DNA from: a virus
Length of the DNA stretch: 53,596 nt
Reading direction: 5' to 3' (one strand)
Virus record (IMG/VR): IMGVR_UViG_3300035698_019603
Span: 1 to 53,596 of that record
Shown here piece after piece: positions 2,255 to 21,669 of this stretch. Numbering within the stretch: the first letter of the stretch is position 1; each line of letters starts with the position of its first letter. The notes under the pieces were generated by a model. It had not been told where the DNA came from and did not search any database. It worked only from the letters and a program-made list of their open reading frames with translations. The translations under genes were made by a program, and so were the position numbers.

Positions 2255-2992
2255 TTAAATTTTAATCCTTAATGTTTTCCCATCAACTTCAAACGAAGTA
2301 GCCAGGTCACCTTGTGACTTAGTAGTTGCATTTGGATGGTCAGTGGCAGGAATCGTGGTCACCTGAACACTTCCGTCATTTACACTATCTGAATCAATCT
2401 CTTTATTAAATACTACAACAATTTCACTTGTTTCGGTAGAGTGTCCAGTAGAAAGGTCTGCTGGAGTAATAGATACTACCTCAAGTGCGGTATCAGCAGA
2501 TGCTGCCGCTTCGGAATCTGTAGCAGAAAGAACTGAAGATGAAACATCAGATGGTACAGCAATTAACGAACCTGACCCTGCAGTAAACGCAGTAGTAAAG
2601 AACCCTTCAATTTCAGCACCAGCTTCATCAAGTACACCTGCCAAGTTCATTACATAGTCTACAAGAGGAGACAATGGATATGTTGGAGTAAAGGTAACGG
2701 TTGTGTTTCCGGCGATGCCAGTAACTGTCACTCCACCAGCTACAATTCCTTGATATCCAGGAGATTGTAGAAAGTCGTCAACATCACCTTGAGAGACATT
2801 ATTTGGTGAATATAGTTCTAAAAGTCCCGGTCCAACATATTGGTCAGTATCAGGACCTTCGAGGAATATTCCCTCAAGAAGACTGTCTTCATCATAATCT
2901 AAACCTGCAAGGGTTATAGAGGGAGTTGTACCCAACGGAACACCTTGCTGCCCGCTTGCTGGGAAAATGCTGATAATGCTTAGACTAGCCAC
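2255..2992 (-). CDS. Ig-like domain virion protein
   Basis: 245 residues starting at GTG 2992, chosen because GAGGAG lies about 7 nt upstream and no ATG fits. Two repeats of the bacterial Ig-like (Big_5/SbsA type) pattern are seen: an N-terminal one beginning SIISIFPASGQQGVPLG and a C-terminal one reading ALEVVSITPADLSTG followed by an IVVVFNKEID strand with conserved Asp and Ser. Such domains are common add-ons of capsid decoration and tail proteins and often help adhesion to surfaces. No catalytic residues. The gene follows the capsid block and precedes the fibre, consistent with a surface-exposed virion component. Confidence 0.7.
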   Translation of the reverse strand: MASLSIISIFPASGQQGVPLGTTPSITLAGLDYDEDSLLEGIFLEGPDTDQYVGPGLLELYSPNNVSQGDVDDFLQSPGYQGIVAGGVTVTGIAGNTTVTFTPTYPLSPLVDYVMNLAGVLDEAGAEIEGFFTTAFTAGSGSLIAVPSDVSSSVLSATDSEAAASADTALEVVSITPADLSTGHSTETSEIVVVFNKEIDSDSVNDGSVQVTTIPATDHPNATTKSQGDLATSFEVDGKTLRIKI

Positions 2993-2995
2993 AGA

Positions 2996-3646
2996 TTACT
3001 CCTCGAGTTGACTCATCACTTCTGGCGACAAAACCAAATTTTCTTCTTCAATATCGCCTTGTGTGAAAGTCACAACCTCTACATCTGATTCTACTATATC
3101 TGAGACCTGTGTCGACCTACTGTGAGGATCTAATTGATTAAAAATAATATCATCTCCTGATCCAATAGCAGCTGTCACGGAAAGTTCGTGTTTATCTAGT
3201 AGTTTTTCCAGAAAAGAAATTACACCTTTTCTCTTCTTGAGAGACATTTCTAACTCAAGTAACTTGCGTAATCTACCTGGTGAGAGATCACATGCAATTT
3301 TCTTGACAGATGCTACACCTTGACGAAGTAATGCTCTTAAAGGTTTTAGATCTGCCTTAATCGGATCTACCGTCAATGACTTTGCCATTTTGGTAACTGC
3401 ACCCATTTTGATTGGGATTTGTTCCTGTGGAATTGGGGTAACTGGCTGCATAGCTTGAGCCAAAGCTTTGAGACCTTTTTTATCATCTGTTTCAAGAACA
3501 CCACGATTAACATTGTAAAGTAGTTGCTGTTTATACTGATCTGGCAACTGATCAACATCAATCTCATGTACTGTCTCTGCAAACGAAAAGGAAAAAGGAC
3601 CAATAGTACAGAACGGACTCTTCTCTGAGTTTAGTTCAAATATCAT
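2996..3646 (-). CDS. Putative structural protein
   Basis: 216 residues from the ATG at 3646; a start 33 nt further upstream is open but the strong AGGAGA site at about 3651-3656 lies directly before 3646 and decides the start. No known domain was recognised. The central part is Lys-rich and helical, and the C-terminal third is acidic. It is the first gene after the terminator that follows the major capsid gene, so it is probably read either from a new promoter or by read-through. Function unknown. Confidence 0.65.
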   Translation of the reverse strand: MIFELNSEKSPFCTIGPFSFSFAETVHEIDVDQLPDQYKQQLLYNVNRGVLETDDKKGLKALAQAMQPVTPIPQEQIPIKMGAVTKMAKSLTVDPIKADLKPLRALLRQGVASVKKIACDLSPGRLRKLLELEMSLKKRKGVISFLEKLLDKHELSVTAAIGSGDDIIFNQLDPHSRSTQVSDIVESDVEVVTFTQGDIEEENLVLSPEVMSQLEE

Positions 3647-16629: not shown

Positions 16630-19600
16630 CTATATGTTCTTCCGACGTGGACGGCTACCCCTGCGAGGAGAAAGTCCAAGTCTTCTATTACTTTTTTGAA
16701 TCGTAGGTCGAGGAGCATCACGATTGAATCCATCCCACGACCAGAGTTTTGGAGTATTATGTGCTGTATTACTGGCAGGTAGATTATTACTATTACCGAA
16801 TAATGATTGTTGTTCAACAGTACGTGGTTCTGGTCTAGTCTTATCCCTTTCTGTCTTAGCGTTCTTCTTTCTGTCTACCTTGAAAACAAGGTCACCTTTG
16901 TGAATATCAGGTTCTGATATCTCACCTATCTTACCAGTAAATGCAATTTGAGTAGAGTGCTTGGGTTGTCCCAAAGGAGTAGTTTCCAGAATGAAGGCTA
17001 CAACAGAGAGCATCAGTGCATCCAACGCATGATCACCAACTGTTTCGTTATTTGCCTTGTAAACTGCATTACCAGTAGGAGTTACCCGGTCGATAATATA
17101 ACCAGCTAGCTGAGCTTCCAAGTCTTCATCATACTCAGAGAACCTGATGTCATTAGCTTCAAATCGACGAATTGTACTCTCTACAAGGAAACCTTTGGCA
17201 TTCTTCTTCACAGGCTGTTTTGTGAACAGGTCTCTAATCTCAATACTACTACCAAAATCATATGCTTTCACGATATCTCGCAATGCAGAGTCTGGATGAT
17301 TTGGACCCTTAGTTGGGTCAGCTAAAGAATCAAATCCAAATCCATGAAGAATCTCAACCTGAGTGCTACCATATCCCTTATCCACATAAATTGCTATTGG
17401 ACGCCAAATACGATTCATTTCTGCTATCTTCTGACAAGAGACTGTTTGTGTCCAACCCTCTTTCGAAACTACTGTTCTATCTACAAGATAGAATAAATTA
17501 CTTGCTGGATTGAAGCCTAGGACATTAATGGTCGTCCCAATCTTTGTGTCATTCCAATCAACACCCAGAGCATAGGTCCATCCAGCAGTACGCGGGATAT
17601 CCCCATAATGATAGTCTGCTTTGGCAGCTTGTACATATACATGTTGGAATACACCTTGTTCCTGTTCACCAAAGGCAGCATCACACTCATGTGTGTAACC
17701 AATCTCTGTGAGTGCTTCTCTGAAGTCAGCTTCCAAATCATCTGTCCATAGTGGATTGGAACTGGATGGGAAATAGAACTCTTTGTATCTCTTAGAGGCA
17801 CAGTTTCCAAAGAACATCTCTCTCTTACCAGATGGAGTTGAACTCATCCAAACTGTAGCTGTTGGATAGTTTGTGATGATAGCCATAGCTGCATCCATGT
17901 CACCAGAACTTAGATAGTCAGCTTCATCAAAGACTAGCATGTGGGCAGCTTGTCCACGTACTGCTTCAGCGTTACCACCAGACTTGGTACCTGCAGTGAA
18001 GCCTCGAGCGACGGACTTGTTATACAGCTTCATTGTATACGTAGGAGCCTTAATGTTCTGCTTGACTGAATTCTGGGTTAGGGATGAAGATGCAATCAGC
18101 TCTGTCATTCTTGTGAAGATTAAATCGATTTGAGTTTGATAGGGAGTGATAATAACAATTTTAAAACCTTCTTTATCTGGCACACCTGGTTTGGTGAACA
18201 TACTGAAGAGCATTGATATTACTAGCGTTTCTGTTTTTCCAGCCTGTCTCCCAATACGGAAGACTTTTCTCTTGGAGGTACAATTGTGAACAACAATACC
18301 TTCTGCTACAAAGTTGTGTCTAGTATCAACTTCTATATCCCAAACTTCTTCACGACCCCAATATTCAATTCGTTTAACTTGAGTTCTAGACAAAGTTTTA
18401 AGAGACCCGTGACGCCTATTATGAACTCTAGATCTAGTTTCATTAAGTGCCTCAATAGATTGAGCTTCTTTACCAAAAATAGGTCCTGTAAACTCTAAAA
18501 ATGTTTCAATGTCTTCAATCCGAGATATAGTAAGACTGACTGAGGATGATTTATTTCCATGATCTTGATAAATATGACTAGTATAAATACTTGCCTTTTT
18601 TAAAAGAAGTCGAAATAACTCCAAATATTCTGGATTACCACTAGATAAAGATATACAGCTTCGTTTGTATTCTAAATTTGAATCATTTTGATTATAGATA
18701 CACCCATCGCCGGCATAACATCGATTAAGAAAAACTGCCAAAGCTGCTTCATTATAATTAAAAGCAAATTTTAATAATGACATCTCTCGGTTAGTCTTGT
18801 CAGTACATCCCATTTCTCTCAATGTACTCAACAGCAAATGCTTTCTATTAAACACACAAACAGACCAATGTTCTTTATGTAATACTCCATTCTTATCTTC
18901 TCTAGCAGAATGATATTTTACGTCAGGTCGATCTACTCCAAAAATACCTGCAACAAGATCTGCAAACTCTTCTACATATTTTTGTCTAATATTCCTGAAT
19001 TCTACTACATGCTTTTCTCCAATCCTACCGGAATTACACACATATCCATCAGAGATTATGTATCCCATAAGTTTAGCTGCAGCAATATTAGATTCTTGTC
19101 CAAATATACCAAACTGATTTAATGTGTAAACCTTATCTCCTACTGACAAACCATCTTGTAAAGTTTTATAGACACGCCTAAAAGACTTTTTGTTAACAAG
19201 ATTATTGAGCTTACCTTCATGAAACCAAGATAATATTGGGTGATTATCTGTAACTTTGAGAACATCACCGTTATTTAATTCAATACGATAAATGTCTCGA
19301 ATACCGTTGTTCCATTTATTGAGAACTCTGTATGAAGATTGAGTAGTCTTCCTTTTTTCATTGTAGGTAACTATCTTATCTCCGATTTGAACATCCTTAA
19401 TTGACTTGACTGTTCCATCACCCATAAAGACTTTAGTCTCCCCATGAAGACAACGGAGCATCTCTGCTTGATAGGGACGATGATAGCGAGAGTGTCCCAA
19501 GACATCTGCATCAGGATTGAGGTCTCTCCACTCCTTATACTCATCTGGGTTCTTTCGTTTCCAGACAGTGCCAAGTGGGTCTAGACAATGCCAATCCAAC

Positions 19601-19815
19601 ATCTGTGCAGCCCAGGTGACAGGGTCAAGTAGTCCACGGGCTACATCTCGTTCTTCTGGTTCAATGGACTCTAGAATAGATAGAGGGATGTGATCTTTGG
19701 GAATACCATTACACTTGATCTCAAACTTTTGTCCTATCTTAAGATTGTGCTTTCCTTTGTATCCTTTGATACAAGACAGACATGATTTGTCGCACTGGTT
19801 GAGATCTGTGATCAT
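16630..19815 (-). CDS. Terminase large subunit with one intein
   Basis: 1061 residues. ATG 19815 has no clear Shine-Dalgarno site and lies 6 nt after the upstream stop, so translation may be coupled. After removal of the intein (122-511) the mature protein is 671 residues. The N-terminus has a Cys cluster (C8, C12, C15, C35). The ATPase has a Walker A-like GRQAGKTE at 522-529 directly after the intein and a Walker B MLVFDEAD about residue 615. The RNase H-like nuclease shows GVDWND and a later VGDHALDAL with Asp. The protein cuts concatemeric DNA and pumps it into the prohead through the portal. A basic tail ends the protein. Confidence 0.92.
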   Translation of the reverse strand: MITDLNQCDKSCLSCIKGYKGKHNLKIGQKFEIKCNGIPKDHIPLSILESIEPEERDVARGLLDPVTWAAQMLDWHCLDPLGTVWKRKNPDEYKEWRDLNPDADVLGHSRYHRPYQAEMLRCLHGETKVFMGDGTVKSIKDVQIGDKIVTYNEKRKTTQSSYRVLNKWNNGIRDIYRIELNNGDVLKVTDNHPILSWFHEGKLNNLVNKKSFRRVYKTLQDGLSVGDKVYTLNQFGIFGQESNIAAAKLMGYIISDGYVCNSGRIGEKHVVEFRNIRQKYVEEFADLVAGIFGVDRPDVKYHSAREDKNGVLHKEHWSVCVFNRKHLLLSTLREMGCTDKTNREMSLLKFAFNYNEAALAVFLNRCYAGDGCIYNQNDSNLEYKRSCISLSSGNPEYLELFRLLLKKASIYTSHIYQDHGNKSSSVSLTISRIEDIETFLEFTGPIFGKEAQSIEALNETRSRVHNRRHGSLKTLSRTQVKRIEYWGREEVWDIEVDTRHNFVAEGIVVHNCTSKRKVFRIGRQAGKTETLVISMLFSMFTKPGVPDKEGFKIVIITPYQTQIDLIFTRMTELIASSSLTQNSVKQNIKAPTYTMKLYNKSVARGFTAGTKSGGNAEAVRGQAAHMLVFDEADYLSSGDMDAAMAIITNYPTATVWMSSTPSGKREMFFGNCASKRYKEFYFPSSSNPLWTDDLEADFREALTEIGYTHECDAAFGEQEQGVFQHVYVQAAKADYHYGDIPRTAGWTYALGVDWNDTKIGTTINVLGFNPASNLFYLVDRTVVSKEGWTQTVSCQKIAEMNRIWRPIAIYVDKGYGSTQVEILHGFGFDSLADPTKGPNHPDSALRDIVKAYDFGSSIEIRDLFTKQPVKKNAKGFLVESTIRRFEANDIRFSEYDEDLEAQLAGYIIDRVTPTGNAVYKANNETVGDHALDALMLSVVAFILETTPLGQPKHSTQIAFTGKIGEISEPDIHKGDLVFKVDRKKNAKTERDKTRPEPRTVEQQSLFGNSNNLPASNTAHNTPKLWSWDGFNRDAPRPTIQKSNRRLGLSPRRGSRPRRKNI
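18283..19452 (-). mobile_element. Intein in terminase large subunit (Cys1...Asn390, +1 Cys)
   Basis: 390 residues, Cys122 to Asn511. Block A CLHGETKVFMGDG, block B DNHPILSW, blocks F/G EVWDIEVDTRHNFV and GIVVHN followed by +1 Cys: all canonical. LAGLIDADG-type motifs LMGYIISDG and YAGDGCI mark a DOD homing endonuclease. The insertion point lies ten residues before the P-loop, inside a conserved part of the ATPase, as is common for inteins. Confidence 0.93.
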
Positions 19816-19821
19816 CGAATA

Positions 19822-20358
19822 TTATTGCCAGCCTTTCAGTGTAGACTTGATTCGCCTGGCCTGTCTGTTGATCGCCATAGAGGCTCCACCTGCGTGCATT
19901 CCACCAATTCTTCCTCTTAAGCCTCTATTTACTGCTTGAGTTGTACCTTGTACTCCTCGAGCAGTAGCAATTCCACCACGAAGAGCATCACTTCTTGCTA
20001 ATGCCCCAGCATTCTGTCCTCCTGCTGACATGAAAGCTTTGGTTTGTGACCACGCAGAGCCTCCCGCAGCTTTTGACATCGTTTGTGCGAATCTGCCGTT
20101 TGATACAAATGAGCCTCCATACCTAGCACCACCTGCTCCAGCCGCTGCACCCATAGCCATTCCACCAAGAACGCTAGTGTCATCAGAGACAGCACCCCAT
20201 ATACCACCAGCAGCCATACCAATACCGCCAGGAGTTTTCATGAATGCTCCAGTACTTCGAATTGCTCCAGGCATTGCTCCAACGGCACGCGCAGCACCTC
20301 CTACAATACTAGAAGCTGCACCGAGAATTCCACCTGCTACCCTGTTACCTATATTCAT
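19822..20358 (-). CDS. Gly/Ala-rich putative virion protein
   Basis: 178 residues, over a third Gly and Ala, with short hydrophobic stretches such as AAGGIWGAV and MAMGAAAGAG and a basic C-terminus. ATG 20358 is preceded by GGAGG, and this site lies inside the orphan 3' end of the upstream gene. Similar composition in the genes at 20956-21669, 21679-22344 and 24626-24871 suggests a set of related or co-acting proteins, perhaps internal or membrane-penetrating virion proteins. Function is inferred only from composition. Confidence 0.6.
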   Translation of the reverse strand: MNIGNRVAGGILGAASSIVGGAARAVGAMPGAIRSTGAFMKTPGGIGMAAGGIWGAVSDDTSVLGGMAMGAAAGAGGARYGGSFVSNGRFAQTMSKAAGGSAWSQTKAFMSAGGQNAGALARSDALRGGIATARGVQGTTQAVNRGLRGRIGGMHAGGASMAINRQARRIKSTLKGWQ

Positions 20359-20361
20359 GAA

Positions 20362-20415
20362 TTATCCTCCAAACGATCTATGCATTAGGAACCCTTCGTT
20401 TCCTAATGCCATTCT
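20362..20415 (-). pseudogene. Orphan original 3' end of the interrupted gene
   Basis: These 54 nt encode RMALGNEGFLMHRSFGG and a stop, matching at protein level the last 17 codons of the gene at 20956-21669 in all but the final residue. At DNA level 17 of 54 positions differ. It lies directly behind the HNH gene and provides the Shine-Dalgarno GGAGG for the next gene, as expected of the ancestral gene end now cut off by the HNH cassette. Confidence 0.85.
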
Positions 20416-20956
20416 ATCGTGTTTTTAAGTCACTAGCAATCTTAGCATAGTTTTCTTCAGCCCATAGAGGTTGAAGATTAGAATAATGACAAGCTTCAAG
20501 TAGTTGTTTTCTGTCTGATAGATTAAAACTACAAAGCGGCTTAGTGTGGTCAATGTGCCACATAGTGCCATAATTGCTCCAGGTCATCTCTGGTTTAAAC
20601 CGTTGTTCAAGATGAAGTTTTAATTCTTTGACAGTACAACCTAAATCCCTGACAGCAGAACCACACTTCTGATCATTGGCAATTGCTTGACAAAGTCGAG
20701 TTCGAAGGTTGCAGGACAATCTGTATTGGATATCACTTTGCTTTCGATTCTTACAATATTGATTACAATACCGCCTATTCTTTGTTTTCCAATTCCTTTT
20801 GGCCTGCAATACAAACTCCCTGTTTTTATCTGCGTATTCCTTGTTGTATAAATTAATGCAAACTTTGCACTGACTTGTTATTCCGCTTTTTGTAGACGAC
20901 TTTTTATAGAATTCGTTTACATTTTTCTGCTGCTTACATTTGCTACAAATTTTCAT
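20414..20956 (-). CDS. HNH homing endonuclease (free-standing)
   Basis: 180 residues. N-terminal zinc-binding CSKCKQ and CKVC pairs are followed by a basic linker and a C-terminal HNH core: MWHIDHTKPLCSF about residue 135, then CHYSNLQPLWAEENYAK with the conserved Asn and surrounding residues of this phage HNH family. The ATG overlaps the stop of the preceding gene (TAATG), so it is expressed by coupling with the structural operon. It lies between a recoded 3' end and the original 3' end of that gene, which marks it as the mobile part of an inserted cassette. Confidence 0.88.
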   Translation of the reverse strand: MKICSKCKQQKNVNEFYKKSSTKSGITSQCKVCINLYNKEYADKNREFVLQAKRNWKTKNRRYCNQYCKNRKQSDIQYRLSCNLRTRLCQAIANDQKCGSAVRDLGCTVKELKLHLEQRFKPEMTWSNYGTMWHIDHTKPLCSFNLSDRKQLLEACHYSNLQPLWAEENYAKIASDLKTR

Positions 20957-21669
20957 TAAGACCCAAAACTCCTGTGCATTAAAAAGCCTTCATTTCCTAG
21001 GGCCATACGACCGTTCAAGTGCGAATTACTCAAGGCTGCAGCAGATCTTTGTCGCATGGTTGCAGCACCCTGACTATTCACAGCATCTTGCATCTGATCT
21101 GACTGACCCATCTCCATCTGTCTCAACCCCTTAGCATGAGCACGTCCAGCCTGACCAAACGAATAACCTGCTAGACCAACTCCAGCTGCAAGAGAAAGAG
21201 GACCAAGAGCAGCTACAGCTGCCCCACCACCAAGTGATGCAATAGCTCCACCAACATAGTGGAATGCCGCACTAGCAGCAACAGAATAGGCGGCTTCCTT
21301 CGTTGCACCCCACACACCTTCTTCCTGATAGCCTTGATACATAAAATAACCAGTAGCAGCCAATCCAATGGATCGCATTGCCATCCCGCCAATACCACCC
21401 TTGATTCCACCCTTTGCTACATCCTTGCCCCAGTTCTGTCTACCCAGAAATCCCTGGGGGTCAGCATTCTTACCCCAGCCTTCAACGTGCCAACCGAATG
21501 ACTCCATGGCGCCGAGTTTGAGAGATCGACCAACAGCACCTTGACCAAACTTATGTAAAGATTGTCCAGCAGCTCTATCCCATCTACGTAATTTTTGTCC
21601 AACATTAGTCTTTCCAAATCTTTTAATAGACTGTCCAATATTACTTTGGTGAAAATCATCAACAAACAT
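20956..21669 (-). CDS. Gly/Ala-rich virion protein with recoded 3' end
   Basis: 237 residues; AGGAG precedes ATG 21669. The N-terminus has repeats of the type NIGQSIKRFGKTNVGQKLRR. The middle (about residues 90-175) is rich in Ala and Gly with hydrophobic helices, suggesting membrane interaction or an internal virion role. The last 17 codons plus stop (20956-21009) are duplicated at 20362-20415 with mostly synonymous changes, evidence that the HNH cassette replaced the gene end. The encoded protein is nevertheless complete. Confidence 0.7.
   Translation of the reverse strand: MFVDDFHQSNIGQSIKRFGKTNVGQKLRRWDRAAGQSLHKFGQGAVGRSLKLGAMESFGWHVEGWGKNADPQGFLGRQNWGKDVAKGGIKGGIGGMAMRSIGLAATGYFMYQGYQEEGVWGATKEAAYSVAASAAFHYVGGAIASLGGGAAVAALGPLSLAAGVGLAGYSFGQAGRAHAKGLRQMEMGQSDQMQDAVNSQGAATMRQRSAAALSNSHLNGRMALGNEGFLMHRSFGS

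What the first reader, a model, noticed from the sequence alone, without database searches (positions are those of the whole stretch)
20362..21009. HNH cassette carries a recoded 3' end of the gene it interrupts
The last 17 codons plus stop of the gene at 20956-21669 occur twice: in place (20956-21009) and behind the HNH gene (20362-20415). Protein identity is 16 of 17 residues, yet 17 of 54 bases differ. Eleven of the 14 identical residues that have synonymous codons use a different one. The downstream copy keeps the Shine-Dalgarno site of the next gene, so it is the ancestral end. The cassette thus restores the host gene while changing the probable target sequence. That would make the insertion harmless and immune to its own endonuclease.
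Basis: partly seen in the sequence, partly recalled or inferred. Interest (0 to 1): 0.82.

Follow-up and report, generated by a model that had tools for sequence, protein, structure and literature searches.

The report
Phage endonuclease carrying spare gene ending
A selfish DNA-cutting gene in a phage has inserted near the end of another phage gene and brought a differently spelled but equivalent ending with it, so the host gene still works; related enzymes in other phages have done the same at least seven more times.

Summary
An HNH gene (20414-20956, minus strand) lies behind a gene (20956-21669) whose last 17 codons plus stop occur twice. Protein identity is 16/17, yet 17/54 bases differ and 11 of 14 degenerate codons are synonymous alternatives. 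Seven relatives without HNH at this site have one gene end followed directly by the next gene. The downstream copy keeps that junction and its Shine-Dalgarno site, so it is the displaced native end. The arrangement recurs: among 194 related HNH genes lying behind a gene I found seven more independent sites at score 34 or above (nine further loci), plus mirror-image 5' cases. Flavobacterium phages that are nearly identical at the flanks show this HNH family arriving in one block with a diverged part of the neighbouring gene. In L267/L272 the cassette is more similar than the displaced end. The best explanation is homing with co-conversion of a foreign gene end on one side and an end-joining-like junction on the other. 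This fits better than on-the-spot recoding. Self-immunity is plausible but untested, and one site (L054) has hardly any recoding. The same architecture is known from fungal mitochondria (Allomyces, Glomus); I found no phage report in the literature I could search.

The parts
20956..21669 (-). Host gene (237 aa, no Pfam or PHROG match), upstream of the terminase gene
   Evidence: homologue in L001 53% identical
20956..21009 (-). In-place, foreign (recoded) 3' end of the host gene, 17 codons + stop; part of the mobile cassette
20969..20973 (-). AGGAG inside the recoded end (codons AGG AGT), possible Shine-Dalgarno of the HNH gene, 12 nt before its ATG; the displaced copy has AGA TCG there
   Evidence: read from sequence
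20414..20956 (-). HNH endonuclease gene, 180 aa, endonuclease VII-like (phrog_1035, E 4.7e-18), N-terminal Cys pairs, HIDH...N motif intact
20362..20415 (-). Displaced native 3' end of the host gene, no longer joined to its gene, out of frame with the HNH
20366..20370 (-). GGAGG inside the displaced end: Shine-Dalgarno of the next gene (7 nt spacing), as in L001 (AGGAGG)
19822..20358 (-). Next gene (178 aa), directly behind the single gene end in the relative L001

Best explanation
This is a free-standing homing-endonuclease cassette made of a foreign gene end plus an HNH gene. In a donor phage the HNH gene sat directly behind a diverged allele of the same gene. After the enzyme cut near the 3' end of the gene in the recipient (inferred), the upstream side was repaired by homologous recombination, which copied the donor's gene end and the HNH gene (co-conversion). 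The other side was joined directly behind the HNH gene without using homology (inferred from anatomy), so the recipient's own end stayed behind as a displaced remnant that still supplies the ribosome-binding site of the next gene. The host protein is therefore restored. The spelling differences reflect divergence between donor and recipient. They may also remove the target site.
For: Gene order in relatives without HNH at this site: L001/L198, L199, L200, L201, L203, L205 and L215 have a single end directly before the next gene. The displaced copy keeps the 13 residues RMALGNEGFLMHR of L001 while 17/54 bases differ, so divergence predates displacement (inference). Recurrence in the same HNH family: L171, L041, L044, L014, L054, L267/L272, L292 and L144, seven independent sites besides the window at score 34 or above; at score 40 or above, 8 of 194 non-tandem HNH loci against 2 of 874 ordinary genes, Fisher p 3e-5. 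Mirror cases at gene starts: L088, L011 and, more weakly, L073. In nearly identical cultured Flavobacterium phages the difference between HNH+ and HNH- genomes is one block of HNH plus a foreign two-thirds of the next gene, with flanks 94-100% identical. L267 vs L272: in-place copy 0/84 and cassette 10/822 differences, displaced copy 5/84 (p 0.009), gene body farther upstream 16/300 (p 0.0002), sequence behind the displaced copy unrelated: a one-sided tract. Empty-site relatives L233 and L234 for the L041/L044 site.
Against: No close relative of this window was found, so the donor of the foreign end is unidentified. Homologous ends differ about equally from both copies in most relatives. Cleavage was not tested. 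In the Flavobacterium phages the native end is replaced rather than displaced, and at the gene start, so they show the import step but not the duplication. Only about 4-5% of the HNH loci show a recognisable duplicate.
Confidence: 0.83

Rival explanations
1. Self-immunising rescue: the recoded end was selected because it removes the enzyme's target while keeping the protein, a natural analogue of recoded 'home-and-rescue' gene drives. The import route may be the same, but the differences are the function.
For: Differences between copies are mostly synonymous in several independent sites (window 11 syn/1 non, L171 10/3, L267 15/7, L292 8/3), including AGT-TCG serine swaps. Joining the native left side to an unchanged end would rebuild the cut site, so some change is logically needed if the target spans the junction. 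L011 start MSHLSA differs at 6 of 18 bases with no amino-acid change.
Against: L054 has 1 difference in 27 bases and L044 has 3 in 21, so strong recoding is not universal. Synonymous excess is also what any diverged homologous end shows. Target sites are unknown.
Confidence: 0.4
2. A simple target-site duplication at insertion, followed by slow divergence of the two copies on the spot.
For: L054 has a 29-30 nt almost exact direct repeat flanking the HNH gene.
Against: In the window the displaced copy is not translated as part of the host gene, yet has no amino-acid change among the 13 residues conserved with L001. About 15 neutral changes would have scrambled it. Repeat lengths vary at the same site (16 vs 7 codons in L041/L044, at least 27 vs 14 in L267/L292). 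Foreign gene parts arrive in one step in the Flavobacterium phages.
Confidence: 0.08
3. The HNH segment is an intron or bypassed segment removed at RNA or translation level, and the downstream copy is the real gene end.
For: Homing endonucleases often sit in group I introns, and phage T4 gene 60 has a bypassed segment next to a homing endonuclease gene (known from the literature).
Against: No intron family matched in the window at Rfam gathering scores. The in-place end is a complete in-frame end with stop, so no splicing is needed.
Confidence: 0.03
4. Chance similarity or an assembly artefact.
For: The window is a metagenomic virus record.
Against: Score 85 against at most 35 in 3999 mismatched pairs. 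Copies differ at 17 bases, unlike an assembly duplicate. The arrangement recurs in independent contigs.
Confidence: 0.02

Closest known systems
Mobile ORFs (mORFs) of fungal mitochondria: Allomyces macrogynus atp6, Glomus sp. atp6/atp9/cox2/nad3 (Beaudet et al. 2013, PMC3630166)
   Same: An endonuclease ORF is inserted near a gene's 3' end with a foreign carboxy-terminal coding segment that replaces the native one. The native end is displaced downstream. For Glomus atp6 the two copies are 63.5% identical in DNA and 91% in protein. The paper also concludes that the inserted end was imported.
   Different: LAGLIDADG or GIY-YIG enzymes in organelles, against endonuclease VII-like HNH enzymes in phages here. 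The duplicated ends here are mostly short (7-27 codons). Mirror cases at gene starts occur here, and the displaced end often serves as the C-terminus of the endonuclease.
Free-standing homing endonucleases of T4-like phages (Seg, Mob) with co-conversion (review PMC2988022)
   Same: Intron-less endonuclease genes between phage genes; spread with co-conversion of flanking sequence.
   Different: No displaced duplicate of the neighbour gene's end is described in the passages read.
T4 gene 60 bypass segment with MobA (recalled, not read here)
   Same: A mobile cassette whose insertion leaves the interrupted gene functional.
   Different: Works by translational bypassing, not by a duplicated gene end.
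Synthetic home-and-rescue gene drives (HomeR, PMC7968924)
   Same: An endonuclease inserted in an essential gene, together with a recoded version of the gene's remaining part.
   Different: Engineered CRISPR system in Drosophila; here no designed recoding and no tested target.

Membership tests
Endonuclease VII-like HNH endonucleases (phrog_1035) | Profile match over the whole protein with intact H-I-D-H...N catalytic motif and N-terminal Cys pairs | tested here: met
   phrog_1035 E 4.7e-18 over residues 1-174; motif WHIDH...NLQPLW...N present; no Pfam match at 1e-3 and no PDB match at E 1
Free-standing homing endonuclease | Gene present/absent at the same site in related phages, not inside an intron or intein | tested here: met
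   Seven relatives lack it at this site; no intron found; same family polymorphic among 68 Flavobacterium phage records
Free-standing homing endonuclease | Site-specific cleavage of the empty allele and super-Mendelian inheritance | not testable with these tools
   needs biochemistry and mixed infection
mORF-type gene-end-carrying cassette (fungal mitochondria) | Endonuclease ORF flanked by two versions of the host gene's end, upstream one in frame with the gene | tested here: met
mORF-type gene-end-carrying cassette (fungal mitochondria) | Inserted end is of foreign origin by phylogeny | tested here: inconclusive
   no close relatives of the window; 17 codons too short; supported indirectly by L267/L272 and the Flavobacterium phages
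mORF-type gene-end-carrying cassette (fungal mitochondria) | LAGLIDADG or GIY-YIG endonuclease in an organelle genome | tested here: not met
   HNH enzyme in a phage genome; so it works like an mORF cassette but is not a member of that group
Home-and-rescue (recoded, target-immune) drive | Rescue copy is resistant to the element's own nuclease | not testable with these tools
   target unknown; L054 shows little recoding

The most novel reading that the evidence does not exclude
A family of phage HNH elements has evolved a general natural home-and-rescue strategy. They target the ends of important genes (terminase, helicase, methyltransferase, structural genes) and travel with a recoded gene end that both restores the gene and makes the new junction uncuttable, at 3' and, mirrored, at 5' ends.
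Probability: 0.35. Interest if true: 0.85.

Novelty: new variant of a known kind. Interest (0 to 1): 0.64.

Why it matters
It explains how intron-less homing endonucleases can settle inside phage coding sequence without harming the gene, and shows that a trick known from fungal mitochondria recurs in phages with an unrelated nuclease. It offers cultured pairs of HNH+ and HNH- Flavobacterium phages in which homing with a foreign gene end can be tested directly. If the recoding also gives immunity, it is a natural counterpart of engineered home-and-rescue gene drives. It also warns that gene ends next to HNH genes can be chimeric.

Tried and rejected
Phage records near the window: megablast of 5 kb and tblastn of the host gene gave no match. 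L001's own HNH behind the terminase was checked for a duplicated terminase end: none. Intron or other RNA in the window: only two tRNAs. L170 and L118 repeats were set aside as non-coding (L170's second copy lies at the edge of a tmRNA match). L318 scores come from tandem HNH genes, and I attribute the high tail of the enlarged null to such HNH-versus-HNH matches without having checked it. L111 is an HTH-HNH fusion beside an HTH gene, kept apart. Codon usage and GC3 of the two ends do not discriminate. No search for an empty site succeeded for L014. Literature searches for a phage precedent found none in the open library; subscription papers are missing from it.

Full report
Observation. On the minus strand the 237-aa gene at 20956-21669 ends in CGT ATG GCC CTA ... 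TCT TAA. The HNH gene starts in its stop (TAATG), and behind the HNH stop lies AGA ATG GCA TTA ... GGA TAA, followed 3 nt later by the ATG of the next gene. The two 54-base stretches encode RMALGNEGFLMHRSFGS* and RMALGNEGFLMHRSFGG*, differ at 17 bases, and use different codons for 11 of 14 degenerate identical residues. Upstream of the repeat there is no similarity. In an anchored comparison of 'end of the gene before an HNH' against 'stops behind the HNH', the window scores 85, while 3999 pairs of mismatched loci give at most 35.

Which end is native. The nearest relative, L001, shares the neighbourhood (three genes, then terminase) and has one gene end, RMALGNEGFLMHRGFSA*, then AGGAGG and the next gene. 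Relatives found through the terminase add L199, L200, L201, L203, L205 and L215: all have a single end (RMALGNEAALLHSSF*, RMAMGNEAFLIHGVMR* and so on) directly before the next gene. An HNH homologue of the window type was found in none of the five of these records that were searched whole, except at another place in L001's record (L201 and L203 were not searched). The second copy in the window is the one with this native junction and the Shine-Dalgarno GGAGG. The in-place copy instead contains AGGAG (codons AGG AGT) 12 nt before the HNH start. So the in-place end belongs with the HNH gene and the downstream copy is the displaced native end. Nucleotide distances to L001 do not discriminate (8 vs 8 differences in 36 bases).

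Why the spelling differs. If the copies had diverged after the insertion, the displaced copy, which no longer belongs to the gene and is out of frame with the HNH, would have collected amino-acid changes. It has none in the 13 residues shared with L001. The roughly 15 synonymous differences, one of them a three-base serine swap (AGT/TCG), therefore predate the displacement (inference). The end arrived already diverged.

It is a recurring arrangement. Related HNH genes were collected from viral contigs, genomes and phage records. Screens gave, besides the window: L171 (helicase end, QSKARRKVYKTLGLKEA / QSKARAKVYKTLGCKEG, 17/51 bases), L041 and L044 (homologous genes, same site, 18/48 and 3/21), L014 (DNA methyltransferase, 4/27), L054 (1/27), L267 and L272 (terminase, 27 codons, 30/81 and 32/81), L292 (the same terminase site in a diverged phage, 15/42) and, weaker, L144 (another terminase type, 22/51). 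That is seven independent sites besides the window. At score 40 or more, 8 non-tandem HNH loci of 194 qualify against 2 of 874 ordinary genes; both of those look like whole-gene tandem paralogues. In the enlarged test the mismatched-pair null has a high tail (0.4% at 45 or more), which I attribute to pairs of HNH ends from tandem HNH loci; this attribution was not checked. In L041, L044, L014, L054 and L171 the displaced end is read as the C-terminus of the HNH protein and supplies its stop. Mirror cases exist at gene starts: L088 (MKKSDVTQEL before the HNH, IKKSDVTQEL at the start of the next gene, 4/30 bases), L011 (MSHLSA twice, 6/18 bases, no amino-acid change, p 0.02) and, weaker, L073 (MALEEE/MALEDE, p 0.05).

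How it moves. Flavobacterium elemo phages are a natural experiment. HNH-bearing elemoC_14-1A (L238; elemoA_2-5C is 98% identical to it over the region) and HNH-free elemoA_15-9B (L236) are almost identical on both flanks. Between lies the HNH gene plus a different first two-thirds of the ERF gene, rejoined in its conserved last third. At a second site HNH-bearing elemoA_10-9C and HNH-free elemoE_6-9C are identical up to the HNH block and again from the codons KYHKLL of the next gene. The block is HNH plus a foreign first two-thirds of that small gene. So this HNH family moves together with a diverged end of its neighbour. There the native end was replaced; in the window and the cases above it was displaced. 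In the pair L267/L272 the in-place end is identical (0/84) and the cassette differs at 10/822, while the displaced end differs at 5/84, the gene body farther upstream at 16/300, and the sequence behind is unrelated. This is what a recombination tract with homology only on the upstream side would leave. The point at which the native end resumes differs between homologous sites (L041 vs L044, L267 vs L292), which fits a variable end-joining-like junction better than a fixed staggered cut (inference).

Immunity. It is not shown. L054 and L044 have little recoding, and synonymous excess is expected of any diverged homologous end. I treat it as a rival or additional function at about 0.4.

Relation to known systems. 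The architecture and its interpretation are known from fungal mitochondria: Allomyces atp6 and Glomus atp6, atp9, cox2 and nad3, where endonuclease ORFs brought foreign carboxy-terminal segments and displaced the native ones, with mostly synonymous differences (PMC3630166). Co-conversion by free-standing endonucleases is known in T4-like phages (PMC2988022). No phage report of displaced duplicate gene ends was found in the open literature held here. I therefore call it a new variant of a known kind: it works like a mitochondrial mORF cassette, but is an HNH element of phages.

Noticed in passing
window 18285-19428 (minus strand), inside the terminase gene 16630-19815: The large terminase carries an intein with a LAGLIDADG homing domain (Pfam Intein_splicing, LAGLIDADG_3); the relative L001 has the terminase without it.
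   Followed up: partly
L001 9010-9505: The relative carries an HNH gene of the same family behind its terminase gene, without a duplicated gene end.
   Followed up: yes
L190/L238 vs L236; L240/L189 vs L239: Cultured Flavobacterium elemo phages are polymorphic for two HNH genes of this family, each arriving with a foreign first two-thirds of the following gene (ERF gene; a small hypothetical gene).
   Followed up: yes
L111 1773-2500: HNH protein fused behind a 58-residue XRE-type HTH domain; a 67%-identical stand-alone HTH gene follows directly: a mirror case at a gene start or a domain capture.
   Followed up: partly
L170 1834-1860 and 2920-2946: A 27-base repeat flanks an HNH gene next to a tmRNA gene (Rfam match 2917-3214) in a Pelagibacteraceae genome; the second copy lies at the edge of the tmRNA match, as if an RNA gene's end had been duplicated.
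   Followed up: partly
L267 1570-1630, L292 1668-1730: A conserved hairpin-like leader (GGTGCAGCGGGGCGGTAACCCCCTGCACC / GGTGCAGCGAGGCGGCAACCTCCTGCACC, with a compensatory pair change) lies between the foreign terminase end and the HNH gene.
   Followed up: no
L318 1977-3214: HNH genes of this family in tandem head to tail.
   Followed up: no
L127 around 1593 and 2281: An exact 20-base repeat ending in ATGAG precedes both the HNH gene and an apparent epimerase-like gene behind it (MSKFLVTGGSGFIG): duplicated start region.
   Followed up: no
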